From assembly GCA_928724745.1 (NCBI GenBank), contig CAKMXJ010000008.1, positions 310,001-374,000 of the forward strand: 64,000 nucleotides of DNA, written 5' to 3'. This DNA comes from Anthracocystis setariae (Eukaryota; Basidiomycota; Ustilaginomycetes; Ustilaginales; Ustilaginaceae). Made by a program: the position numbers and the translations under genes. Under the pieces are notes generated by a model, which did not search any database, was not told the DNA's origin, and saw nothing but the letters and a program-made list of their open reading frames with translations. This document shows, piece after piece, positions 46,336-63,271 of this stretch. The first letter of the stretch is position 1. Each line of letters begins with the position of its first letter.

Positions 46336-47180
46336 TGTCACAGGACGATGTGGGGTCCACGTTAAGGTGGGGTTATAATTAACCTCACTGACATGCACGA
46401 TAGCCTCGTGTTAACGTGGATGAGTATCGGGACCCATACTGACGTACGAGTGAGCAAGCGCGGGTGAGCTTGTACACACGGATAACGTACAGTGTGGACA
46501 CAGGCATTACGAGGAGCTAGCCTCCGATAGAGGAGGAGGACTGGATGCTCGCGGCCGGGTCGAGAGGTCAGTCTTATGTAAGTACGCGCGGGCCCTTGTA
46601 CACACGCCGGTCGTTATAGTAGCGGGCTTGCTCATGACGGCAACAAGGGTTGAGCCCGTGCTGCCAGGAGGGTATATAGGATCACACTCGTTGACGGGTG
46701 GATGAGCTGGAGACTCATCCACTCTACCAAATCTCTTACAGTTAGTACGTTCTCCGTTCCGCACGTTCGTTGTCTCGGCAAGTAGCAATCACAGTACGGT
46801 TGCTACATCTTAGTGTGATTCCGTTCGAGTCGGCGAGCACTACGTAACAGCAGACCCGCTAGTAACACAGGCAGCAAGCTGTGAGCACTAGCAACACCAT
46901 CTCGGTTAGAGACTCCGACGAATACTAGCATTCGCGTCGACGTCTCCCACAACAATTCCCATAACTCGTCATCGACGCTACAACCACTTCAGCAGGTAGA
47001 CTTGTTCGCCCTCTACCTACGGGAGGTGTCCTCACCGTTTGTTGTACCGCACGACCTCTGAGTGGGGCGACAACAGCGCTCTGTCGACACTCACGTTAGG
47101 AGCGACTAACGTGGAACACCCTGAGATCTACGTTAACCGTGCATAAACGTGGATCTTGCTGTCTGGCGCCCGCGCTGACA
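46336..47180 (+). repeat. 5' LTR of the outer chromovirus (about 845 bp)
   Basis: TG start at 46336; the end is placed at GCTGACA (47180) because the PBS begins one base later and the inner element has the same arrangement. TATATA lies at 46673-46678 and the self-priming segment ATCCACTCTA at 46717-46726. Confidence 0.85.
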
Positions 47181-48669: not shown

Positions 48670-51521
48670 AAAACCCTTCACTGCCATCACACTGTACATA
48701 TCAAGACTGTCTTTTCTGTTTCACGGCAGCATCACGGAGACCAGTACTCGAGCTGGATGGTACCATCTTTGGGCATCCTGCGCGAATACTGGCCGACACT
48801 GGTGCTGGTGTGTCTATAGTTTCTCGCTCGTTCATTCTAAAAATCAAGATTCCTACAAAGCCTATATCGAAACGAAGCATACATGGTGTCACCGGACACC
48901 ATCTCCACATCGATAGCGCGGCAAGCATTACGGCCGGCCTCGGTGGCTATCTCATCGGACCATTCGATGCGGAGGTCACTGATATCGACGAGTACGACCT
49001 TATTATAGGCTATGACCTGCTCAGGCAGTTCAAGCCCAGAGTAGACTGGGATACCGGGACTCTCGACTTCCGACCCAGTCGTGAGATCCGGCATAAGGAC
49101 GCATTAACGTTGGGGAAAAATGACGTGCACGTTAAAGCGCCGTTGACGTCGACCTCGGGTATGCGCCTCGTGGCTCACGGCAACGAATTCGTGTCCGCAG
49201 AAGAACTCATCGAGGCAGCTCACGATGATGCCCCTATTGGCATCATCCTACTGGACCTAGACCTTGTCAGTAAGGACAGGCCAATCCTAGGGTTCGTTCC
49301 CACCGGCAAGGATAAGGGTATCGAGATGGAGGTCGGGCCAGAAGAGCCGGCAAAGGAGGTGACTATTCCTGAGCCCTACCGGGACCTCCACAGGGTTTTC
49401 TGTGAAGTGGAAGCTGACAAGCTACCTCCGCGAACAGAGCACGATCTGCCCATAGAGCTGGTACCAGGCACCTCTCCGCCGTTCGGGCCTTTATACCTCA
49501 AGGGGCCCAAGGAGATGGAAGAACTGCGGAGGTACCTCAACGAGAACCTCAGTAAGGGGTTCATACGCCCCTCGCAGAGCCCTGCTCGGTCACCGGTTCT
49601 CTTCGTACCTAAGAAGGATGGTGGTCTCAGGCTCTGTGTGGATTACCGAGGCCTCAATGAGGTCACCATCAAGAATCGTGCACCGCTTCCTCTCATTGAC
49701 GAGCAACTCTTCCTATTACGCAATGCCAAGATCTATAGCAAGTTGGACCTCAAGGCCGCATACAACCTGGTGCGGGTAGCAGAAGGTGACGAATGGAAGA
49801 CAGCGTTCGGCACACAGCTTGGTCTGTACGAGTACCTCGTCATGCCGTTCGGGCTGGCCAATGCTCCCTCACACTTCCAATCGCTCGTAAACGGCATCTT
49901 CCGAGATATCATTGGCATGTACGTAGTGGTGTACTTGGATGACTTCCTCATTTTCAGTAACGACCTGTCGGAACACATTCTACATGTGCGGGAGGTCTTA
50001 ACCCGGCTACAGAGACACCGATTGTTTGCCAAGCTGTCCAAGTGTGAGTTCCACACCACCAAGGTGGAATTCCTGGGGTACGTCATCACACCGGACGGCG
50101 TCGAGATGGATGAGGCGAAGGTTCGCACCATCAGGGATTGGCCGATACCAACGTGTATACATGACATACAGCGTTTCTTAGGCTTCGCCAACTTCTATCG
50201 ACGGTTCATTTCTCACTTCGCTCGGATTGCGAGGCCTCTCACCTCCTTGGTCAAGCCGACCGAGCGCTTCAAAAAGTTCGAACTGTCGGACGAAGCAGCC
50301 AAAGCCTTCCAGAGCCTCATCGATGCCTTCACCTCTGCTGGAGTACTACGGCATTTTGATTATCACCTTCCGACGCGGGTAGAGACTGACGCCAGCGATT
50401 TTGCTATAGCGGGAGTCCTCAAGCAGGAGTACGACAAGCGCTGGCATCCTATTGCGTTCTACTCGAGGAAGATGACTTCGGCTGAACGCAACTATGAGAT
50501 TCATGATAAAGAACTGCTGGCGGTGGTGGCCTGTTTGGCACAGTGGCGGCACATGCTAGCCGGCTTACCTTCACAGTTCCTCATACTCACAGATCATGAG
50601 GCGCTCAAGTATTTCAAGTCGCAGCGGAGAATCAATGGTAGACAAGCTCGCTGGGCAGTACTGCTCGCTGACTTCGACTTCAGTCTACAGTACCGACCGG
50701 GCAACAAGGCTGGGGAGCCGGATGCACTCACCCGCCGACCAGACATGCACCCAGCGGAGGATGAATCGCAGCACAACATGCACCAGTTGTTGCCGGCTCG
50801 ACTATTCGCCGAACCAGAGGAGTTACCCACGTCTACGTTATCCGCGAATTACCGTGGACAAGTGCCTACCGCTACAATAAATGCAGTTAAACGTCAATCT
50901 CAGGTACCGAATCAGGGGAACGAGGTTGCCGAGTCGACTCCGACGATGGCTGACGTCACCTCAGGAGGCCTGGTGGAGCTTGCCCGTACGTTTCAACCCC
51001 TTGATGAGGAGTTGGTGACAATTCACAAGAGACAGCCGTTTGAGGCCAAGGACGGACTATGGCATAAGGACGGCCGCCTGGTCATACCCAAGGTCAAGCT
51101 CCCAGGACGGCAGGGTAAGACAGATACTCGCAGTGCTCAGATAGTCGAAGAGAGATCCCTCTCTGTGGAGCATCTACGGTACATGGTCATGTCGCAATGC
51201 CATGACGGACCTACGGCCGGCCACACTGGCCGCGATGCTACACTCGAGTTAGTCCGTCGATTCTATTGGTGGCCAAACATGTCAAGCTGGGTTGCTGATT
51301 ACGTTGCTAGCTGCCCTGTCTGTGCCCGGTATAAGACTCCTCGCCACCGTCCATATGGCCTGTTGCAGCCCTTGTCCACCCCACAGCGGCCCTGGGGATC
51401 CATCTCCATGGATTTCGTGGAGGGGTTACCGCTCTCTGATGGATACGACTCCATCCTAGTAGTTGTGGATCGCTTAACCAAATACGCGGTCCTCCGTCCC
51501 AGTAAGAAGACAGCAACATCG
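48639..51521 (+). CDS. Pol of the outer chromovirus, 5' part (protease, RT, RNase H, start of integrase)
   Basis: The frame lacks a convincing ATG at its beginning and overlaps gag by about 90 nt, in keeping with frameshift expression. Protease: ARILADTGAGVSIV. Reverse transcriptase: KKDGGLRLCVDYRGLNEV, then catalytic VYLDDFLIFS near 49933. RNase H: ETDASDFAIAG and YEIHDKELLAVVAC. The integrase zinc region ends CPVCARYK, and the first core Asp is in SISMDFVEGLP. The frame is broken after codon TCG (51519-51521) by the inner element, 40 residues into the core; it resumes at 60151 in phase. Confidence 0.94.
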
Positions 51522-52026
51522 TGTTACAACTGGACAGATGTTCCCAGCCAGCGCGCCACCGGAACACTGGCCAAAGGCCGTGTAGGAGAGTGAGCGTGCC
51601 GCGCAGCATAGGCCATTAGGAGCGCGCCGCGCGGGACGTTCTGTGAATGGAGGGGCGCGCCGCGCGTCGCCCCCCGAAGACGGGAGCGCGCCGTGTAGTG
51701 CTCGACACAGGGGTCCACCCCAGGTGTCGCGAGTTGAGGTCGCGCGCGGCCCACGCGTCCCAGGAGGGGGCGCGCGCCGCGTGGCACGCATGATGCCTTA
51801 TAAGGGGGAAACCGCGCGCCGCCCTCCTGTAGTCCATCGTCGATTGTATTCTTAGTTACCTTGAGTAATAGCGAATATCAGACCCAACGGTAGAACCGTT
51901 AACCTCAGGATCGTGCCCGGTGACTCTCGTGGCCACCACTCCCGCCACGCGCCCTCAAGCCCAAGCCTCGCACACCGCGTGCCTCGCCGCACAGTCAGGA
52001 GGTTGTCAGACCCTTGGCGCCTAACA
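51522..52026 (+). repeat. 5' LTR of the inner chromovirus (505 bp)
   Basis: Starts TGTTACAACTGG, ends GCGCCTAACA. U3 holds five blocks of GCGCGCC type (about 51632, 51656, 51687, 51769, 51813). TATAA lies at 51799-51803 and the self-priming segment GTCGATTGTA at 51839-51848. Confidence 0.96.
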
Positions 52027-52027
52027 T

Positions 52028-52037
52028 TACAATCGAC
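52028..52037 (+). other. Self-priming PBS of the inner chromovirus
   Basis: TACAATCGAC is the exact reverse complement of GTCGATTGTA (51839-51848), 40 nt past the TATA box, and starts one base after the LTR, as in the outer element. Confidence 0.75.
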
Positions 52038-52064
52038 CTACCCGTCACCCCGCACGCTCAAACA

Positions 52065-53456
52065 ATGCTCCCCATGCCGGTGACTCGCAGCCAGGTCGCC
52101 AACCAAAACCCCTTGGACGACTGGTCCTCCGCCGGGGAAGACCCTCCCATGGTCGCCGCACCCTCCTCGGCGAGCGCGACCACCACCAACTCCCCCGCGC
52201 CCACCCCGGAGGCCGCCGTCCCGCTGATGGCGGTGCTCCAGGAGCAAATGGCCGTCCTACAGGAATTGGTCCTGGAGATGCGCGCGTTGCGCCGCGAGCA
52301 AAGGGGCCAACCACCCCCCGCGGCTACCCCCTCCCAGCGCTCGCCCAGGGCCGCCGAAGCGGAGCCCCCCAGAGAGGCTCCCAACCCGGTGACGGATCGC
52401 GAGACATCCGAGCAGCGCTACGAGCGAGCCACCCGCCGGATGGAGCAGGACCCCCACCACGCCCGCGAGTCGCAGCCCGGGTACTCCCTCCCGGTCCCTC
52501 CTCTGGTGCCGTGGACCGCTCCCCTGGACGCGAGCCTCGACAAAGCTCCCGAACTCCGCATCGCTGCCCCCGACTGGGACGGTAAGCGGGAAGAGCTGGA
52601 GGCCTACATTGAGCAGTGCGAGCTGCACTTCGACCTCAACCCGGCACGCTTTGCCACAGACAACCGCCGGGTCCTCTGGGCCCTGGCACACGTGGGTGGC
52701 GCGCCTCGCGACCACCTGCGCAACATGCGCCAGGCGAGCCCCCACGACCCGATCTTCCACGACTGGCCGCGCTACTGCGGTTCCCTACGCCGCACGTACG
52801 GCGATCCTCACCCAGGACATACGGCCAGGATGCAGCTGCAGAAGCTGCGTCAAACCGGGAGCGTCAGCCGCTTCGCTGCCGAGTTTCAGGCGCTGGCCAC
52901 GCGAGCCAACGCTACCGACAAGCAGCAGCTGCTCACTACGTTCCAGCTGGGACTCCGGGAGACGTTCCGGCGCCACCTCCTACATGTGCAGACCCACGAC
53001 CTGCAGGAGTACATCAACGCTGCTGTACGCACCGAGCAGCAGATGCTCGAAACCGGCCTCGACTCGGCCGGAACCGCCCACATTCCGGGCCGCGCTACGG
53101 GCCGCAATGACGAGCGCCCGACCGGAGCCCGGTACGACCCCGACGGGAGCCCCGACTGGTGGGCTGAACGCCGCCCGCCCCGCCGCCGCCCCGGCCGCCG
53201 CGCGCCCAACTTTCCATGCTCCGGCCCGCGCCAACACGGCTTTGCAGAAGCTCACGGAGGACACACGCCGCTACCGGCGCGAGAACAACCTGTGCTACAC
53301 CTGTGGCGAGAAGCACCTCGCGCGCGATTGCCCACAGGCCACGCAGGAGCGCGCGCTGCGCGCTAATGTCATTACGGTTGAGCCCACTACAGGCAACTAC
53401 CTCCTGCCGCCCGAAGGAGAAGATCCCGCTTCAGACCACGCGCCTACCGAGTGCGA
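52065..53456 (+). CDS. Gag of the inner chromovirus, one +1 frame break
   Basis: From ATG 52065 the frame codes a Pro-rich leader and a capsid-like domain (LEAYIEQCELHFDLNP, FHDWPRYCGSLRRTYGDP, FQLGLRETFRRHL). Within about 53160-53205, a run of CCG/GCC units, the reading passes to the +1 frame, where the knuckle CYTCGEKHLARDC (a CX2CX3HX4C variant, one residue short in the middle spacer) appears. The unshifted frame ends at 53366 in Arg/Pro-rich nonsense. It is either a real mutation or an extra base in a GC-rich stretch. Confidence 0.8.
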
Positions 53457-56400
53457 CCCCCCCGGCCGAAAGGGATGCCTACGACGAAGCGGTCTACGAC
53501 CCCACCCTCGACCCCCTGGGTTTTGAGGACGCCCTTTTCCCTCTCCGCGCGGCCGTGGCTCAACTACTGACTCACCCCGATTGGTTCCCACTCCGCACGC
53601 ATGTCGCCGCACTGGAACCCATCGCGGAGCCATCTGTTCAGGGCGACCACATCCGTGTGAGTCGCCACCCCAGCATTCCGGCCTACGAGTGCTGGGTCAC
53701 CATTGACCACCTGCGGGCGCGCGCTCTCATCGACGGCGGCGCTACCGCGTCCTTCGTGGCGAAGGATCTCCTCGAGGGCGCGGGCATCGACCTGCACGGG
53801 TTGGCCACTCCGGTTAAGACAGCAACGTTTGACGCAGCCTCGGAGCCCATCACTCATACCTGCAGGGCAGCTGTGGGGCTGGCGGGCCTCACTGTCGCCG
53901 TCCACCACCGCTTCTTCGTGGCCCCGCGCATATCGAGCTACGACGCCATCTTAGGCTTGGACTGGATCGAGGCCACGCGCCCCGTCCTTGACTACGAGGC
54001 TCGCGCTATGCGATTTCCACTGCCCGAGCAAGGCGAGCACGAGGCCGTGACGCCCCCGGCCGGGGCCATCCCCTCGCTGCCGTTTGCCGACAATACCGCC
54101 GAACACTGCGTCCTCGTCCAGGCGCACGCGGACGAGCTCGCCGCCGTACCATCGCCTAAGGACATCCCCGCTGCGTACCAGGAGTTTGCGGAGGTGTTCA
54201 ACGAGGCCAACGCCGACATCCTGCCGCGCCCGCGCCCCCAGGACCACGAGATCAACCTCCTGCCGGGAGCCAAGATCCCACACAGGCCACTATACTCTCT
54301 GTCCGCACGCGAGCTCGACGAGCTCAAGAAGTACATTGACAAGATGCTCGCTATTGGGTTCATTCGGGAATCGCAGAGCCCCGCCGCGGCCCCTATCATC
54401 TTTGTACCTAAGAAAGACGGTCGCCTCCGACCATGTGTAGACTACCGCGCGCTCAACAGCGTGACCATCAAAGACAAGTACCCCATACCCCTCATCGCCG
54501 AACACTTGGACTGCCTCGCGCGAGCGCGCGTCTTCACCAAACTCGACCTGAAGGGAGCGTACAACCTCCTCCGTATCAAGGAGGGGCACGAATGGAAAAC
54601 GGCATTCCGCACGCGCTACGGTAGCTTCGAATACATGGTAATGCCATTCGGGCTGTGCAACGCGCCATCTACGTTCCAGCGCTTAATGAACCACATCCTG
54701 CACGACCTGCTCGACGTGTCCGTGGTGGTGTACCTGGACGACATCCTCGTGTTCTCCCGCGATCCCGCCGAGCACGACACCCACGTGCGCGAGGTACTCC
54801 GCCGGTTGCGCCATAACCAGCTGTATTGCGCTGCCGACAAGTGCGAATTTGGGGTCACCTCGGTGGAGTTCCTGGGCTACCGAGTCAGCCCGGCCGGCAT
54901 CTCCATGGACCCGGCGAAGGTCGAGGCCGTAACTACCTGGCCGGCACCCACGACCATTCGTGACATCCAGGTATTCCTTGGCTTTGCCAACTTCTACCGA
55001 CGATTCATCAAGCACTATTCGCGCGTGGCTCGCCCGCTCACAGACCGCCTCAAGGGCAAAGCAAGCGGGCGCATCTCCTTAGAGCCCTCCGAGCTGGCCG
55101 CATTCGAGACCCTCAAGCGCGCATTCACCACGGCTCCTATCCTGCAACATTTTGACCCAGCGCTGCCCACGGTAGTGGAAACCGACGCCAGCGACTACGT
55201 TGTGGCGGCCGTCCTGTCCCAATGGTACCCAATCAACCCCGCCACTACAACAGCGCCGCGCCCGAGCACGCACCGTCTCCACCCAGTGGCATATTGGTCA
55301 CGGAAGATGCAACCCGCCGAGCGCAACTACGAGATCCACGATAAGGAGCTCCTGGCCATCGTCGACTCCCTTCAAGCGTGGCGCCACTACTTACACGGGC
55401 TGCACGCACCGTTTGATGTCCTCACGGACCACCAAGCTCTCCAGTACTTCCAAACCAAGCGCCAGCTCAATCGCCGTCAGGCCCGTTGGGGCATTGCCCT
55501 GGCAGAGTTCGCATTCTCCATCACCTACCGCCCGGGCACAGAGGCCGCGCGGCCGGACGCTCTGTCACGCCGATCCGATGGTCACCCAAACCTAGCGGAC
55601 GCCCAACGCCACGGCGACCCCGCTAATGTAGCTACCCTCTTGCCGCCCTCCCTGTTCATCCACCCCGAGACAACCGGCGTCGACCCCGTCGACTTCCCGG
55701 CCCCGGCCGCGCGCCGCGCGGCTCTCCTCCCGGCGACCGTCCTTCCGGCCACCCCTTCCAGCGCGGCTGACATCGCCGCCATTCTGTCCCGCTATCATGA
55801 CCACCCCACCGCGGGGCCCCCCGGCGTGGCCACTACCACCGCGCTCGTCCGCCGCCACCACAGCTGGCCCACCCTTGCGCAAGATGTTGTCACCTACGTC
55901 GCCACCTGCTCTGCCTGCAAGCGCGCCAAAGCCCCGCGCCATAAACCTTATGGGCTGCTACTCCCGTTGGGCGCGCCCGACCGGCCGTTCGGGTCCATCT
56001 CCATGGATCACATCGAGGGCCTCCCGCGCTCGCGCGTGGGCGGCACACTCTTCGATTCCATCCTTGTAGTCGTAGACCGCCTCACCAAGTTTGTGATTTT
56101 CATCCCAGCACGGCAATCCGACACCGTTCCCGACCTCGCACGCATGCTCTTTACAAGTGTGTTTTGCTATTTTGGATTGCCTGACCAGATTGTCTCCGAC
56201 CGCGGGCGCACTTTCATCGCCTCCCTCTGGCGAGCAGTGCTGCAACAACTCCAGGTCCGCCCGGCGCTATCCACCGCCTATCACCCTCAAACCGACGGCC
56301 AGACCGAGCGCACCAATCAAACCCTGGAGGTCTTTTTGCGCCTCTACGTCAACTACCAGCAAGATGACTGGGCCGCGTGGCTCCCGCACGCGCAGCTCGC

Positions 56401-57062
56401 CATCAACAACCGCCCCGCTGGCGCTACCGGTCTCCCATCCACCCTCCCCCCTTTTCGGGTTTACGCCCAAAACGCTCCCGGGTTCCCCCGCGCTCGCCCC
56501 CGATGGTGCGCCACCCTCCCCGGCTTCCCTGCAAATGCTCATCGCGTTCTGCCAAGACAACATCGCGCGTGCCGCGCGCACCATGGCGAGCCTCGCAAAC
56601 CGATCCAGGACGGATCGGTCTTACACCGGGGGTGACCAAGTACTGCTGCGCACCAGACACCTGCGCCAGGACAGACCGTCCAAGAAGCTGTCCAACCCCC
56701 TCGCCGGACCATTTACGGTTCTAGAGGCCGTGGGCCAGCGCGCGTACAGGTTGGACCTGCCAGCAGGCTCCCGCGTTCACCCGGTGTTCCATGTGAGCTT
56801 GCTCGAGCCATACCCAGCGGGCGCGCGCCCCACGGAGCACGCGCCACAAGCCACCAACCTCCAAGACGACCGCCAAGACTTCGAGGTGGAACGACTGCTG
56901 GAGGCACGAACGAGCAGACGGGGCCTCGAGTACCAGGTCAAGTGGGCCGGTTATGACGAGCCCACATGGGAGCCGGCGCATCACCTCGCCAATAGCCAAG
57001 AGCTGGTGGACGAGTTCCACAGGTCACACCCAGGAGCGCCCACGGGACGAAGGCAGGCCTGA
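53457..57062 (+). CDS. Pol of the inner chromovirus (protease, RT, RNase H, integrase, chromodomain), two +1 frame breaks
   Basis: The frame changes by +1 at a C7 run (53457-53463) and again at a C6 run (56446-56451). Protease active site reads ALIDGGATASFV, with Gly where Ser or Thr is usual. Reverse transcriptase: CVDYRALNSVTIKDKYPIPL and VYLDDILVFS (near 54730). RNase H: ETDASDYVVAAVL. Integrase: CSACKRAK, SISMDHIEGLP, VSDRGRTF, HPQTDGQTERTNQ. After the second break come HPVFHVSLLEPY and a chromodomain, FEVERLLEARTSRRGLEYQV followed by KWAGYDEPTWEP, at about 56880-57010. Chromodomains of this class steer integration to H3K9-methylated chromatin. Confidence 0.9.
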
Positions 57063-57494
57063 CGGTGGCCGGGGGCAAGCGGCAACCTCATAATGCCGCG
57101 CGCTCCCTCAGGGCGAGCTCCTAACCCGCCTCGCGTCGTCCTACTCATGGCGCGCTCGCCACCCGTGTTGGCGCGCGCACCCCCAGAGCGAGCTCCCAAC
57201 CCGCCTCGCGTCGTCTCGCTCACGGCGCGCTCGCCACCCTTGCGGGCGTGCCCGACACCCTTACACAGCCCCCCAATACCGCGCGGCTCACCAGAGATCC
57301 CGCAACCCCGCGCGCCACAGCACCCACTGGATCCCGCCATGTTCAAGCCTCACTTTTACTCAGACACGAACGCGAGGGCACAAGCACAACGACACGGGGA
57401 ACATTTCGGATTTCAAGGCCGACTACGGGGTTACCGGAGCCGGCCAACAGACATTGGAGTAACAGAGCAAGGGGCGCGCGGTACAACGAGAGAC
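57063..57494 (+). repeat. Non-coding spacer with a 75-bp tandem duplication
   Basis: GCGAGCTCCTAACCCGCCTC at 57113 recurs with one change at 57188, giving a period of 75 bp over about two units. The spacer separates the pol stop from the stop of the antisense gene. Confidence 0.6.
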
Positions 57495-59363
57495 TCAGGC
57501 CGGGCTCGCGCCTTCTCCACCATCAGGGAGTGCTTGCCGGCGCGGACGCTTGGGCGTGCGAGGAGCCTCCGCCGCCAAGGGAGACGAGGGCGACGCGCGG
57601 CGCGCGGGCACCACAGCGACGGGAGAGCCAGCGGCCGGGTGCGAGGCACCAGCCGGCGGCGCGTGGTCCAAGAGGCGCCCAACACGCTCGCGAGCGGCGG
57701 CAATGTGGGACGCGCTGTCCGAGTCCGACGAGTCCGAGGCCACCAGATATGCGGGACCGCTCACCCGCCAGTAGTCTACGAGCTCGTGCAGCGTCGTTCG
57801 CAGGGCAGCGGGCGTAGACTCCAGCATCATCAGGTGCCGCTTCATAGTGGACGACTGCACGTCCATACCCTCCAGCAGGCCAGCGGCGGCGCACTGCCGA
57901 ATCGTAACCTTGAGGTCGTCGAGCGCGCGCTCGATAGCCTCCGTGCTGCGCTGGAGATGCACCGCCTGTTTCCGGTACGAAGCCGATGGCGCCGGCGGAT
58001 TGGACACCAAGGACGACGAACCCCCAGCGTCCTCGTCACGGTTACGCGGCGTCGCGCGAACGGTAGCGCTCAGGCCCCCCGGAAGGGCGCTGAGCGGCTT
58101 ACGCGCAGCATTGCGGCGGGGACGAGGGGCCTTGGGGGGAGCCCAGAGGGCGGGGACGGTCGGCAGCGCGGCCTCGGGTGGTACGGGTAGCGCGGGGACT
58201 GGGAGTGGCGGGCTCGCGCCCCCCCTCCACAGACTCACCATCGCTCTCACTGCTCTCGTTGTCGTCGTCGTTGTCATCCCTGGTTCGACGGCTGGCACGC
58301 GGCCAGCGACGCCGGGCGTAGCGCTGTGCCACAGCGGCGCGCTCGGTCTCCATGTACGGCGGGAGCGCACCTACCGGCACCATCGACGGGGTCAGGGCGG
58401 GATTGGGACGATGGCCCAGAACGCGCATCCAGAGGTAGGCTTCCATCAGCCACGGGCCCTCAAGCCGATTCCCCAGCCACGGAATCCGGCCGCGCCAGTC
58501 GCACTTACGTTTCGTGCCGCACGCGCTGCAGGGCGTCGGCATGCCCTCGAAGGCTTGGGCGATCTCGTCGGGGATCCTGGCGCCGGCGTCGCGCCTGCCC
58601 GTCACTGCGCCCACGCTCGGGATCCGCGTGGCACGCCGCGGCGTCGCAGCCCTTGTGCTCGCACGCGTAGCAGGGCGCCATGAACTCCTCGCAGTCGGGA
58701 TCGCTAACTACCAGGGCGGCCTTGATGAGACGTACGACGAAAGGGACATCGCCGATAGGCTGGTCCTTGCGCTCGCGCATCAAAGAGTCGACGATGGGGC
58801 AGCTCCGCTCGCCCCACGGCAGGACCTCCCACACCTGGTAACGGAATTGGCTCTGGTCGGCCTGATCGCTGGTGGGAGAAGGCGCTCGATCGCGAGCCTC
58901 AGGGGAAGACTGACCGCGAGCCTCGGGGGAAGGAGCGCCGTCGCAGGCCTGGGGCGGCGGCGAAGAAGGGATTTCGATTACCGTAGCGCTTGTGGGTGCG
59001 GGTGCTGCCAGATAGTGGAACCCCGCCGGGAAAGTCAGAGTCAGTATGCGTGCCGCGTCAACGCACCAAGGAAAGAGATCACTCACCGGTCTCCTCGGTC
59101 GGAGAGGCTGTGGATGGCGGGGCCCCGGTCACGGCTACCGCCGCGGGCGAGGCAGTGGTGTCGTTGGCCACCCGGGGGTCGGGGACCACGGCCAAGATCG
59201 CGCGGAGGGTGGACGCAGCCTCGGCCTCAGCGCGCGCTTTCTCACTTGAGGGCTTGTCGGCTAGCCAAGCACAGGAACGGGAAATTCAAAGTTACGCGTC
59301 AGTCAACACCTTACCGCCGGCGCCGTACCTCAGAACGTGCCCATACTCACTGTTGGAGGTCAT
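57495..59363 (-). CDS. Antisense accessory gene of the inner chromovirus, three exons, Cys-cluster protein
   Basis: Exons on the minus strand are 59363-59351, 59260-59087 and from 59004 down. Both introns have GTGAGT donors and AG acceptors, and the phase (1 base carried over) matches at both junctions. Exon 3 continues in one frame through the helix-like block DVPFVVRLIKAALVV and CYACEHKGC, shifts +1 near 58610-58625, continues with PCSACGTKRKCDW, shifts +1 again at a G6 run (58134-58139), and ends as a helical region (STEAIERALDDLKVTIRQ; LHELVDYWRVSGPAYLV) to a stop at 57495. Each part reads like protein; the two shifts may be errors of sequence. The Cys cluster matches in layout that of the antisense gene of the outer element. 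Function is unknown; DNA binding is inferred. Confidence 0.75.
59005..59086 (-). other. Intron 2 of the antisense gene (82 nt)
   Basis: GTGAGT donor, TACTGAC branch site about 35 nt before the end, and CTGGCAG acceptor. All three are of normal fungal quality and exist only on the antisense strand. Confidence 0.78.
59261..59350 (-). other. Intron 1 of the antisense gene (90 nt)
   Basis: GTGAGTATGG at the 5' end, GGCTAG at the 3' end, ACTGAC as possible branch site. It follows exon 1, which is only 13 nt long. Confidence 0.7.
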
Positions 59364-59625
59364 GGTCGTCCAGTTTTCTTGGTGACCCAGCGTGGGGGTC
59401 GAGGGGTAGTCGGATGGTGGAGAGAAGCAGAAAGGTAGACCCCCGTAAGTCAGCCATTGCGAGCCGCAACACCCCAAATGAGGCTGAGCCCCATTGCGCA
59501 ACGCTTTGTGTGCGCCCGGTGATCGACGCGTGCGCTCGCGCCACGCCCCACAAATGGAAAATTCTGGGGACCACTTTCGCCCACCACGGCCGGTGGGCCT
59601 GCGCGCTCCGGAGTGCGCGCACCCC

Positions 59626-59640
59626 GAGGCGGGGGGGTAA
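59626..59640 (+). other. Polypurine tract of the inner chromovirus
   Basis: GAGGCGGGGGGGTAA lies directly before the 3' LTR. The outer element has the same ending, GGGGGGTAA, before its LTR. Confidence 0.75.
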
Positions 59641-60145
59641 TGTTACAACTGGACAGATGTTCCCAGCCAGCGCGCCACCGGAACACTGGCCAAAGGCCGT
59701 GTAGGAGAGTGAGCGTGCCGCGCAGCATAGGCCATTAGGAGCGCGCCGCGCGGGACGTTCTGTGAATGGAGGGGCGCGCCGCGCGTCGCCCCCCGAAGAC
59801 GGGAGCGCGCCGTGTAGTGCTCGACACAGGGGTCCACCCCAGGTGTCGCGAGTTGAGGTCGCGCGCGGCCCACGCGTCCCAGGAGGGGGCGCGCGCCGCG
59901 TGGCACGCATGATGCCTTATAAGGGGGAAACCGCGCGCCGCCCTCCTGTAGTCCATCGTCGATTGTATTCTTAGTTACCTTGAGTAATAGCGAATATCAG
60001 ACCCAACGGTAGAACCGTTAACCTCAGGATCGTGCCCGGTGACTCTCGTGGCCACCACTCCCGCCACGCGCCCTCAAGCCCAAGCCTCGCACACCGCGTG
60101 CCTCGCCGCACAGTCAGGAGGTTGTCAGACCCTTGGCGCTTAACA
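59641..60145 (+). repeat. 3' LTR of the inner chromovirus (505 bp)
   Basis: Same as the 5' copy apart from T at 60140; followed by CATCG (60146-60150). Confidence 0.96.
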
Positions 60146-60150
60146 CATCG

Positions 60151-61347: not shown

Positions 61348-63183
61348 CTAGACTGACGGAAGCGCGATGTGATCAAAATACTCAAGGTCATCGTTGTTGC
61401 GACCTAGGGCATCGACGGCAGGACTGGATGGATCAGCAGGTGGTGGAGACAAAGGACTAAGGACGGGCGAATTCTGCCCAGCAGCCATACGAGACTTGTG
61501 AGGCTGACGCTCGGTCTGCAGCAGCAAACGCAGTTGCTGGTAACGACGGATGGCCTTACTGATATTTTCGAAGAGCTTCTCATCTTCGATACGCCAGTAA
61601 GCCTCCTGAGCCACTAGCCAGAACGGGTCTCGACGACCAAGACGATCGTTACTGCGCACCTCGCCAGTACCATACTCACCTTGACGAGGGGTGATATTGG
61701 CACGCTCTGTGGCCCTTCGGCCACGCTCATGGTGCTCGGCAGACAGATCACCATGGTAGGCTACTGCAGGGTGGATAGGAAGGGTGCGTTGGCATTTACC
61801 CATTCCAGCGACGTGGCAGTTGGTGCACACCGTCGGCATTCTTCCACGCTGGGCGTAAGGATCGACGAACAGCGACCGAAAACATGGTACGCCCAATCTC
61901 CAGCACCTCTCGCAAGACCATGTTGGCCACGGTGAACATCCCTCGGACAAACGCTTCTGGATGACGGCACGGATCCGTTTGTCCGTGGCGCCGCCTTTCG
62001 GAACCATCCAGTGCTCTGGCACACGCTCTCCTACGGCATAGAAGACCAACAAGGAGAGCGCGAAGTAAAACGACGTCCAGTTAGCGATGTCGTCGTGGGT
62101 GGGGTCCACAGGAGCAGGCGGAATTGGTGGAGGAGTCGGGCAAGGAGGTGGTTCAGGAGTATACCTGGTGTCCGAGGGAGTGTCCAATCGCACTCGACCA
62201 GGGACATCAGGCTCGGCAAAGGCAGGGGTGCCTTGCCGACTACCAGGGGGACCGCCGAGGAAGAGGCTACCTCCGTCGTCGCCAGCGGTGGGGACAAACA
62301 AATCTCCCGCCAGTTCGTCGTAGGGGCTGAAGGAGCGGCGGAGCTCCGCTTCCCACTCAGCCTGGCGCTCCTCGGAGAATGCCCGAGAGACAGGAGTCAA
62401 GGGCTGCTCCTCGTCCACAAGGGGGAATGAGTTGTCCTGCACACTGGCAGGAAGGAGAGGAGGAGTGGTGGGAGCAAGCGGCTCGACCACTGGCGCGGGC
62501 CAACCTTCGGAGACCCGCAGTAGAAGATGCGCAGCCTCGTCGTCGAGGACTGCAGGGTCAATTGTTGGCTGCTCGGCAGGACGGCTCAAGCGTGCAGAAC
62601 GGCGCTTTGGGGAAGCCGAACGCCGTAAGGGAGAAGCCGCACGGGGCTGGGCTTCGGTAGAAGAAGACGCTGGCGGCAGGGACCCAGCCAGGCGAGCAGA
62701 ACGGCGGGTAGGCTCCGGGGTGTTCTTGATGGTCTTGCGAACAGCCTTAGCGGTAATGGCTACAACGTCGGAGGTGGACAGCTCTGCGGAGCGAGTTACG
62801 GGTGGGACAGACTGGAGTCTCGGAGAAGCCGAATGCCGTGATGGCGAAGCTTCGGGGGGCTGTCCATCGGAGAAGGTAGTAGTTGCCGCCGGCGGTACGG
62901 ATCCAGCCAGGCGAGCAGAACGGCGGGTAGGCTCCGGGGTGTTCTTGATGGTCTCGAGAACAGCCTTATCGGCAAGGACTGCAACGTCAGTGGAAGGCAG
63001 CTCTGCAGAGCGAGATACGGGAGGAACCAACTGGAGTCTTGGAGAGGCCGAACGCCGCGAGGGCGAAGCTTCGGGGGCCTGTCCATCGGAGAAGGAAGGA
63101 GTCGCAGCTGGCGGCACGGACCCAGACAGGCGAGTCGAACGACGAACGGTTTCTGAGATGTCTCTGACGATCTTGCGGGGCAT
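61348..63183 (-). CDS. Antisense accessory gene of the outer chromovirus, 611 aa, Zn-cluster-like
   Basis: A single intact frame of 611 codons runs against pol between the pol stop and the 3' LTR. The N-terminus has three 73-residue repeats, each opening with RRSARLAGS-type sequence and containing SASPRL and SAEL. The middle is acidic and Pro-rich. A hydrophobic helix (FYFALSLLVFYAVGERV) precedes a cysteine cluster CERCWRLGVPC and CTNCHVAGMGKC, giving C-X2-C-X6-C-X18-C-X2-C-X7-C, like Zn2Cys6 with a long central loop. A helical segment (FWLVAQEAYWRIEDEKLFEN) and a Ser/Pro tail follow. It starts at ATG 63181-63183. Function unknown. Confidence 0.82.
   Translation of the reverse strand: MPRKIVRDISETVRRSTRLSGSVPPAATPSFSDGQAPEASPSRRSASPRLQLVPPVSRSAELPSTDVAVLADKAVLETIKNTPEPTRRSARLAGSVPPAATTTFSDGQPPEASPSRHSASPRLQSVPPVTRSAELSTSDVVAITAKAVRKTIKNTPEPTRRSARLAGSLPPASSSTEAQPRAASPLRRSASPKRRSARLSRPAEQPTIDPAVLDDEAAHLLLRVSEGWPAPVVEPLAPTTPPLLPASVQDNSFPLVDEEQPLTPVSRAFSEERQAEWEAELRRSFSPYDELAGDLFVPTAGDDGGSLFLGGPPGSRQGTPAFAEPDVPGRVRLDTPSDTRYTPEPPPCPTPPPIPPAPVDPTHDDIANWTSFYFALSLLVFYAVGERVPEHWMVPKGGATDKRIRAVIQKRLSEGCSPWPTWSCERCWRLGVPCFRSLFVDPYAQRGRMPTVCTNCHVAGMGKCQRTLPIHPAVAYHGDLSAEHHERGRRATERANITPRQGEYGTGEVRSNDRLGRRDPFWLVAQEAYWRIEDEKLFENISKAIRRYQQLRLLLQTERQPHKSRMAAGQNSPVLSPLSPPPADPSSPAVDALGRNNDDLEYFDHIALPSV
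62684..63140. repeat. 219-bp tandem repeat inside the antisense gene
   Basis: The phrase CCAGCCAGGCGAGCAGAACG starts at 62684 and 62903 and a diverged copy at 63122, a constant step of 219 bp (73 codons). Confidence 0.85.
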
Positions 63184-63271
63184 CTCGTCGGCGATACAGA
63201 GTTGATTGGTGTGGTGGAGGAGTTGGGGCCGAGGCCTGTCTCAACTGTGTCCAGACTCCGACAATCACCAG

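What the first reader, a model, noticed from the sequence alone, without database searches (positions are those of the whole stretch)
57495..59363. Spliced antisense gene inside a chromovirus
The inner Gypsy element carries a gene on the strand opposite to gag-pol, between pol and the 3' LTR. It has two introns with GTGAGT donors, a TACTGAC branch site in intron 2 and AG acceptors, and both junctions keep the frame. An LTR element copies its sense RNA, so introns survive only if they are antisense; their presence is direct support for a functional antisense transcript. Antisense extra genes are known in plant Tat/Grande elements and spliced ones in HTLV-1 (HBZ), but I know of none described in smut chromoviruses.
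Basis: partly seen in the sequence, partly recalled or inferred. Interest (0 to 1): 0.93.

Follow-up and report, generated by a model that had tools for sequence, protein, structure and literature searches.

The report
Spliced antisense gene in fungal retrotransposons
Two related families of copy-and-paste DNA elements in a fungal genome carry, on the backward strand, a split gene that natural selection has kept intact, which suggests that these elements depend on a further, unstudied protein besides the ones that copy them.

Summary
The observation largely holds. The window's own copy is broken in exon 3 (spliced frame stops after 228 codons). In the same genome 18 of 18 near-full-length copies, in four subfamilies up to about 15% apart, keep the GT-AG sites of both introns; 10 of 18 read open for 563-567 aa. 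dN/dS between subfamily representatives is 0.15-0.28 (4 of 18 copies used). A second chromovirus family (pol 68% identical, about 40 places) carries a homologous antisense gene (32-45% identical in the core) with a 7-nt first exon, phase-1 intron and TATA box in 37 of 37 starts examined; its dN/dS (0.13-0.26) matches that of its gag-pol (0.13-0.28). One public homologue was found (Sporisorium reilianum, uncharacterised); no Pfam or PDB match. Antisense genes in LTR elements are known in plants and in fungal Boty elements (brtn), so this is a new variant of a known kind: a spliced antisense gene family of chromoviruses, probably coding a zinc-binding nuclear regulator (inferred). No transcript was seen.

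The parts
51522..60145 (+). Inner Ty3/Gypsy chromovirus (family F1): LTRs 51522-52026 and 59641-60145 (505 bp, one mismatch), flanked by the 5-bp duplication CATCG (51517-51521 and 60146-60150), inserted in the integrase region of an outer chromovirus
51924..53366 (+). Sense frame with gag (about 50% identical to the gag region of family F2)
53168..56635 (+). Sense pol frame: aspartyl protease, reverse transcriptase, RNase H, integrase
56097..57062 (+). End of pol: SH3_Tf2-1 domain and chromodomain; lies in another frame than 53168-56635 in this copy
59351..59363 (-). Exon 1 of the antisense gene (13 nt, start codon at 59363)
59261..59350 (-). Intron 1 (90 nt, GT-AG, phase 1)
   Evidence: sites kept in 18 of 18 copies
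59087..59260 (-). Exon 2 (174 nt)
59005..59086 (-). Intron 2 (82 nt, GT-AG, TACTGAC)
   Evidence: sites and motif kept in 18 of 18 copies
57495..59004 (-). Exon 3: Cys/His-rich core, acidic Ser/Asp-rich and basic stretches, C-terminal part; frame broken in this copy, open to the end in 10 of 18 copies
59599..59643 (.). Polypurine tract next to the 3' LTR and an adjoining palindromic block identical in the four subfamily representatives aligned
61348..63240 (-). Antisense open frame (630 codons; 611 aa from an ATG) of the outer chromovirus (family F3), same relative place; Cys-pair motifs but no significant sequence similarity to F1/F2

Best explanation
It is a real, spliced protein-coding gene carried antisense between pol and the 3' LTR by two related chromovirus families of this genome, most simply kept since before the two families split. 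It is transcribed towards pol from its own promoter between the 3' LTR and the ATG (in family F2 a TATA box about 89 nt upstream), spliced at one (F2) or two (F1) GT-AG introns, and translated to a protein of roughly 560-615 aa. The introns survive because the RNA that is reverse-transcribed is the sense strand, in which they read as CT-AC and are not removed. The protein has a conserved Cys/His core (C-x2-C ... C ... H ... C-x2-C-x5/6-C-D-W), acidic Ser/Asp-rich stretches and a basic, nuclear-signal-like end. I think it most likely works in the nucleus as a zinc-binding, nucleic-acid-binding regulator of the element's own life cycle (transcription, silencing or RNA handling), comparable in role to HTLV HBZ or to what is proposed for Grande gene23. 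Shown: gene structure, conservation, purifying selection, presence in both families. Inferred: transcription, splicing in vivo, zinc binding, nuclear location, regulatory role.
For: F1: 23 DNA matches in the genome; splice sites in 18 of 18 near-full-length copies, 10 of 18 frames open; length differences that separate subfamilies are 15 and 27 nt in the exons, single-base ones lie only in the introns or upstream of the ATG; dN/dS 0.145-0.283 for 6 of 6 pairs of representatives, variable sites by codon position 67/52/188, intron 2 diverged 27-31% in 5 of 6 pairs; LTR sequence upstream in 18 of 18 and pol end downstream in 16 of 18 copies. F2: about 34 places at 32-45% identity to F1, about 40 found with an F2 query; 4 of 4 fetched elements show LTR repeats, sense gag-pol frames and the antisense gene in the same place; TATA box, 7-nt first exon, GT donor, AG acceptor and CTGAC/CTAAC motif in 37 of 37 start regions; dN/dS 0.134-0.264 for 3 pairs against 0.134-0.280 for 3 pairs of gag-pol; variable sites 61/51/165. 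Public homologue S. reilianum SRS1_10703, E 2.4e-35, 34% identical to F1 over 353 aligned positions.
Against: No RNA evidence. 7 of 18 F1 copies including the window's are broken or truncated, though many of the small differences lie in homopolymer runs and two of them recur in different subfamilies, as expected of slippage or assembly error. In F2 the strand opposite the gene is open too (sense frames of 790-832 codons in three of four elements, 642 in the fourth); but in that frame dN/dS is 1.09-1.46, and it shares the gene's codon boundaries, so I read it as a shadow of the gene. No TATATAA or TATAAA within 300 bp upstream in four F1 representatives. One of four fetched F2 elements (L058) has an interrupted antisense frame. 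No Pfam or PDB relative and only a low-confidence model (mean pLDDT 43), so the molecular role rests on motifs. F1 and F2 align poorly outside the core.
Confidence: 0.62

Rival explanations
1. The protein is a structural or replication accessory factor: a second Gag-like, zinc-bearing nucleic-acid chaperone or nuclear import/export factor that works on the particle or the genomic RNA rather than on transcription.
For: Cys-rich pairs and basic stretches would suit RNA binding; selection as strong as on gag-pol; the review PMC7264820 discusses nuclear import and accessory-factor roles (passages).
Against: A separate antisense transcription unit (TATA box in F2) would make production independent of gag-pol, which I think more usual for regulators than for structural parts; no Gag or zinc-knuckle Pfam match.
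Confidence: 0.22
2. The antisense RNA itself is the functional product (dsRNA or interference with sense RNA, limiting copy number), the reading frame being secondary.
For: Gene and pol are convergent and the sense RNA must run through the whole gene; the host has one Piwi-domain and three RdRP matches (Dicer not searched), so dsRNA might be processed.
Against: Codon-level purifying selection in two families and subfamily exon indels in multiples of three show that the protein matters; conserved splicing is not needed for an interfering RNA.
Confidence: 0.1
3. A host gene captured recently in antisense and only hitch-hiking with the element.
For: Introns are a host-gene feature; gene capture by retroelements is known (PMC7264820 passages).
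Against: Present in 18 of 18 F1 copies and about 40 F2 places whose pol proteins are 68% identical, so not recent; the three protein searches of the genome showed no match that I could recognise as a stand-alone host gene, though only 4 F2 places were read with their surroundings.
Confidence: 0.04
4. Chance open frame and splice-like sites in GC-rich DNA.
For: Long open frames are common in this window in all frames, and F2 has a long shadow frame on the other strand.
Confidence: 0.02

Closest known systems
[quoted passage not shown] 2011, seen only as cited in PMC7264820 and PMC8365987)
   Same: Fungal Gypsy element with a chromodomain (PMC4227169 passage); extra gene antisense between pol and the 3' LTR
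   Different: Ascomycete hosts; its sequence and intron state were not available here, so homology could not be tested; the paper itself is not held
Plant antisense aORFs: Grande gene23, RIRE2, Retand TRP28 (PF04195), PvRetro13
   Same: Same relative place and strand, kept in most copies of a family; gene23 has its own promoter and a nuclear product (PMC7264820 passages and section 5)
   Different: Retand is a non-chromovirus lineage (abstract start); no TRP28 or other Pfam domain here; the passages of the two reviews that I saw report no introns in those genes
HBZ of HTLV-1 (antisense; nuclear, passage; splicing and bZIP recalled)
   Same: Antisense gene near the 3' LTR, spliced, proposed nuclear regulator
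   Different: No bZIP domain found; in F2 the TATA box lies between LTR and gene, not inside the LTR; no sequence relation was seen
S. reilianum SRS1_10703 (uncharacterised, 402 aa)
   Same: Homologue: core and C-terminal part align to F1 (34% over 353 positions)
   Different: Shorter; its genomic setting (element or host gene) is not known here

Membership tests
Antisense additional ORF between pol and 3' LTR (aORF-3R) | Gene between pol and the 3' LTR, opposite strand | tested here: met
   F2 in 4 of 4 fetched elements
Antisense additional ORF between pol and 3' LTR (aORF-3R) | Kept in most copies, conserved like the other element proteins | tested here: met
Antisense additional ORF between pol and 3' LTR (aORF-3R) | Antisense transcription from its own promoter | not testable with these tools
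   TATA box in 37 of 37 F2 starts; none seen in 4 F1 representatives
Chromovirus (Ty3/Gypsy) | RT-RNaseH-integrase order with a chromodomain at the end | tested here: met
brtn (Boty) | Sequence homology to brtn | not testable with these tools
   sequence not available; paper not held
Retand TRP28 | PF04195 domain | tested here: not met
   not among Pfam matches at E up to 10
HBZ-like antisense retroviral gene | bZIP domain | tested here: not met
   not among Pfam matches at E up to 10
HBZ-like antisense retroviral gene | Spliced antisense transcript started in the 3' LTR | tested here: inconclusive
   introns conserved; F2 TATA box lies outside the LTR; no RNA data
F1/F2 antisense gene family, membership of the outer element's gene (F3) | Significant sequence similarity to the F1/F2 core | tested here: not met
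   hhalign probability 15%, E 0.0018 over 23 columns; BLASTP with one F2 protein E 0.014; core HMM: E 11, rank 38 of 707 window frames (the look-up used a wrong frame name and showed nothing)

The most novel reading that the evidence does not exclude
A lineage of basidiomycete chromoviruses has a standing second transcription unit, antisense and spliced, older than the split of its families and shared with S. reilianum, coding a new zinc-binding nuclear protein family. In a host with Argonaute and RdRPs this protein could be an element-encoded anti-silencing factor that offsets the dsRNA its own gene must create: a retroelement counterpart of retroviral regulatory genes.
Probability: 0.25. Interest if true: 0.87.

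Novelty: new variant of a known kind. Interest (0 to 1): 0.68.

Why it matters
Antisense accessory genes of LTR retrotransposons are known but their function is an open question (PMC7264820, passages and section 5). Here the gene has a built-in reporter of antisense expression (introns), codon-level selection like that on gag-pol, two divergent families for comparison, and a homologue in a sequenced smut, so existing or new RNA-seq could test it directly. It also shows what element annotation by Pfam domains cannot see: the protein has no Pfam match, and a smut study of LTR elements that used Pfam domains, and took elements with the domains on one strand for its ancestor construction, does not use the word antisense (PMC9603552, passages).

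Tried and rejected
Pfam, PDB and protein-database searches for function: none, or one uncharacterised homologue; weak Pfam matches below cut-off (DUF2267 for F3, SOG2 for one F1 copy) were not followed. Search of viral contigs: 56 pattern matches, none a relative. Structure prediction of the S. reilianum protein with a two-row alignment: mean pLDDT 43, too poor, so no fold search was run. A word shared by F1 and F2 upstream regions in opposite orientation was dropped: only 9 nt are common to the representatives. F3 as a third family member: not supported by sequence tests, kept as a lead only. A sense gene opposite the F2 antisense gene: rejected by dN/dS 1.09-1.46. Antisense-RNA-only and chance: see rivals. 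Selection in F1 used 4 of 18 copies; in F2 the gene test used 3 of the 4 fetched elements (L058 left out, frame interrupted) and the gag-pol test 3 of 4 (L055 left out, split in two frames). L056 fell out of the 37 start regions because my string search missed it; a few of the F2 places do not reach the start and were not fetched. A first alignment of copies in mixed orientation was discarded and redone. One search scored only the 7992 best word-sharing candidates and missed the homologue that one search found, so absence of other homologues is weak evidence. The literature searches cover open-licence papers only.

Full report
WHAT IS THERE. The window lies in an unnamed 21.5-Mb genome (G000, contig C8). 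The inner element spans 51522-60145: two 505-bp LTRs with one mismatch and a 5-bp duplication CATCG on both sides. On the plus strand it has gag (by similarity to F2), protease, reverse transcriptase, RNase H, integrase and a chromodomain. It sits in the integrase region of an outer chromovirus whose LTRs start at 46336 and 63328. Between the pol end (57062) and the 3' LTR (59641), on the minus strand, lies the gene of the finding, with exons 59363-59351, 59260-59087 and 59004-57495.

IS IT REAL. The genome holds 23 DNA matches, 18 of them near full length, in four subfamilies (L001-L004, L005-L006, L007-L013, L014-L018) with pairwise identity down to about 85%. All 18 keep GT[AG]AGT donors and AG acceptors at both introns and TACTGAC in intron 2. 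Ten of 18 are open from ATG to stop after splicing (563 or 567 aa), one more (L010) is open over an altered stretch, and seven, the window copy (228 codons) among them, are broken or truncated. Unspliced, the ATG frame ends after 19, 23 or 25 codons in 18 of 18. Length differences that separate whole subfamilies are 15 nt (exon 2) and 27 nt (exon 3); single-base ones lie in the introns (three) or upstream of the ATG (two). With one representative per subfamily (4 of 18 copies), dN/dS is 0.145-0.283 for all six pairs with no stop in frame; shifted and reverse frames have stops or dN above dS, except one sense-strand frame, which has a low ratio but 8-12 stops. Many copy-private breaks lie in homopolymer runs, and two recur at the same run in different subfamilies, which fits slippage or assembly error; I cannot tell which.

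IT IS A FAMILY. A search with the spliced protein found, besides F1, about 34 places at 32-45% identity. I fetched four: each has LTR repeats 7.8-7.9 kb apart, sense gag-pol frames (one frame in three, split in the fourth) and the antisense gene in the same place. The pol protein is 68% and gag about 50% identical to F1, the antisense protein 27-30% overall. One search lists about 40 places for this family, F2. In 37 of 37 start regions read (34 fetched from full loci) there is a TATA box (31 TATATAA, 6 CATATAAG), a 7-nt first exon, a GT donor (31 GTAAGT, 5 GTGAGT, 1 GTAGGT), a CTGAC or CTAAC motif and an AG acceptor. In both families the first intron is in phase 1 after a tiny first exon (13 nt in F1, 7 nt in F2). 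F1's second intron has no counterpart in the F2 elements read, where the frame is open from the first intron on. F2 antisense dN/dS is 0.264, 0.251 and 0.134 for three pairs of three elements, gag-pol 0.239, 0.280 and 0.134 for three pairs. Against this stands a long open frame on the opposite (sense) strand of the F2 gene (790-832 codons in three elements, 642 in the fourth); it has no stops over the gene in the three elements compared, but evolves with dN/dS 1.09-1.46, and it shares the codon boundaries of the gene, so I take it as a shadow. So selection on the antisense protein is about as strong as on the copying machinery.

The only public homologue found in a database of 5.8 billion proteins is SRS1_10703 of Sporisorium reilianum (402 aa, E 2.4e-35; found again, alone). 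It is nearer to F1 than to F2 (best 156 against 61 bits), so the F1 and F2 genes probably parted before that gene and F1's did; faster evolution in F2 could mimic this. Such searches can miss relatives: one search missed it.

The outer element (F3) also has an antisense frame of 630 codons in the same place (61348-63240), with three copies in the genome, each open for 611 aa from an ATG; the window's differs from the other two at 18 and 19 bases, 10 and 11 of them synonymous, too few for a test. By eye it has two Cys-pair motifs and a WL..EAY-like stretch, but sequence tests do not make it a relative. It may be a very diverged member or a separate case.

WHAT IT DOES. No Pfam domain or solved structure matches. 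Conserved in F1, F2 and the S. reilianum protein are a C-x2-C, a second C-x2-C-x5/6-C-D-W, and an EAYL...R..G.RPNP stretch. The rest is Ser/Asp-rich, Pro/Arg-rich or of other make-up, with basic motifs near the end (KRPRR in F1, PPRKKRR in one F2 element). I infer a zinc-binding nuclear protein that binds nucleic acid. The mechanism I favour: an own promoter beside the 3' LTR drives an antisense mRNA towards pol; it is spliced and translated; the protein returns to the nucleus and regulates the element. Shown: gene structure, conservation, selection. Inferred: transcription, splicing, location, binding, role. The genome has one Piwi-domain and three RdRP matches (Dicer not searched), as described for Ustilago bromivora, which also has Dicer (PMC5106213, passages), so the host can probably process dsRNA. 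An element that keeps convergent transcription in such a host should gain something from it; this makes an anti-silencing or dosage role worth testing, but is no evidence for it.

KNOWN OR NEW. Antisense genes between pol and the 3' LTR are known in plants and in the fungal Boty elements (PMC7264820, section 5 and passages; PMC8365987, PMC4227169 and PMC5987419, passages). The original brtn paper is not held. Term searches for introns or splicing in PMC7264820, PMC11963269 and PMC5408684 showed no introns reported for antisense genes. Searches aimed at such a gene in smuts, basidiomycetes or fungi listed no paper that I could recognise from title or abstract start as describing one in a basidiomycete; a study of LTR elements in smuts (PMC9603552) does not hold the word 'antisense' in its main text. 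This covers open-licence papers only. I therefore call it a new variant of a known kind.

Noticed in passing
window 61348-63240 (-): The outer chromovirus has its own long antisense frame in the same place, with a 219-bp tandem duplication (62656-63093) inside it; three copies in the genome.
   Followed up: partly
window 59599-59643: A palindromic GC-rich block next to the polypurine tract is identical in four F1 subfamily representatives although their surroundings differ; function unknown.
   Followed up: no
L063, L077, L078, L080, L089, L091: One F2 subfamily has a T-run of varying length inside the antisense intron, shortly before the acceptor.
   Followed up: no
G000:C11:421877-422797; C20:365967-367769; C3:1018875-1020653; C34:363373-365331: The host genome has one Piwi-domain and three RdRP matches, so RNA silencing genes are present.
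   Followed up: partly
window 53168-57062: In the window copy the chromodomain end of pol is in another frame than the rest of pol, although the LTRs differ at one base only; slippage or assembly error not distinguished.
   Followed up: no
L055-L058, strand opposite the antisense gene: F2 has a 642-832-codon open frame on the sense strand over the antisense gene; the selection test says shadow frame.
   Followed up: yes
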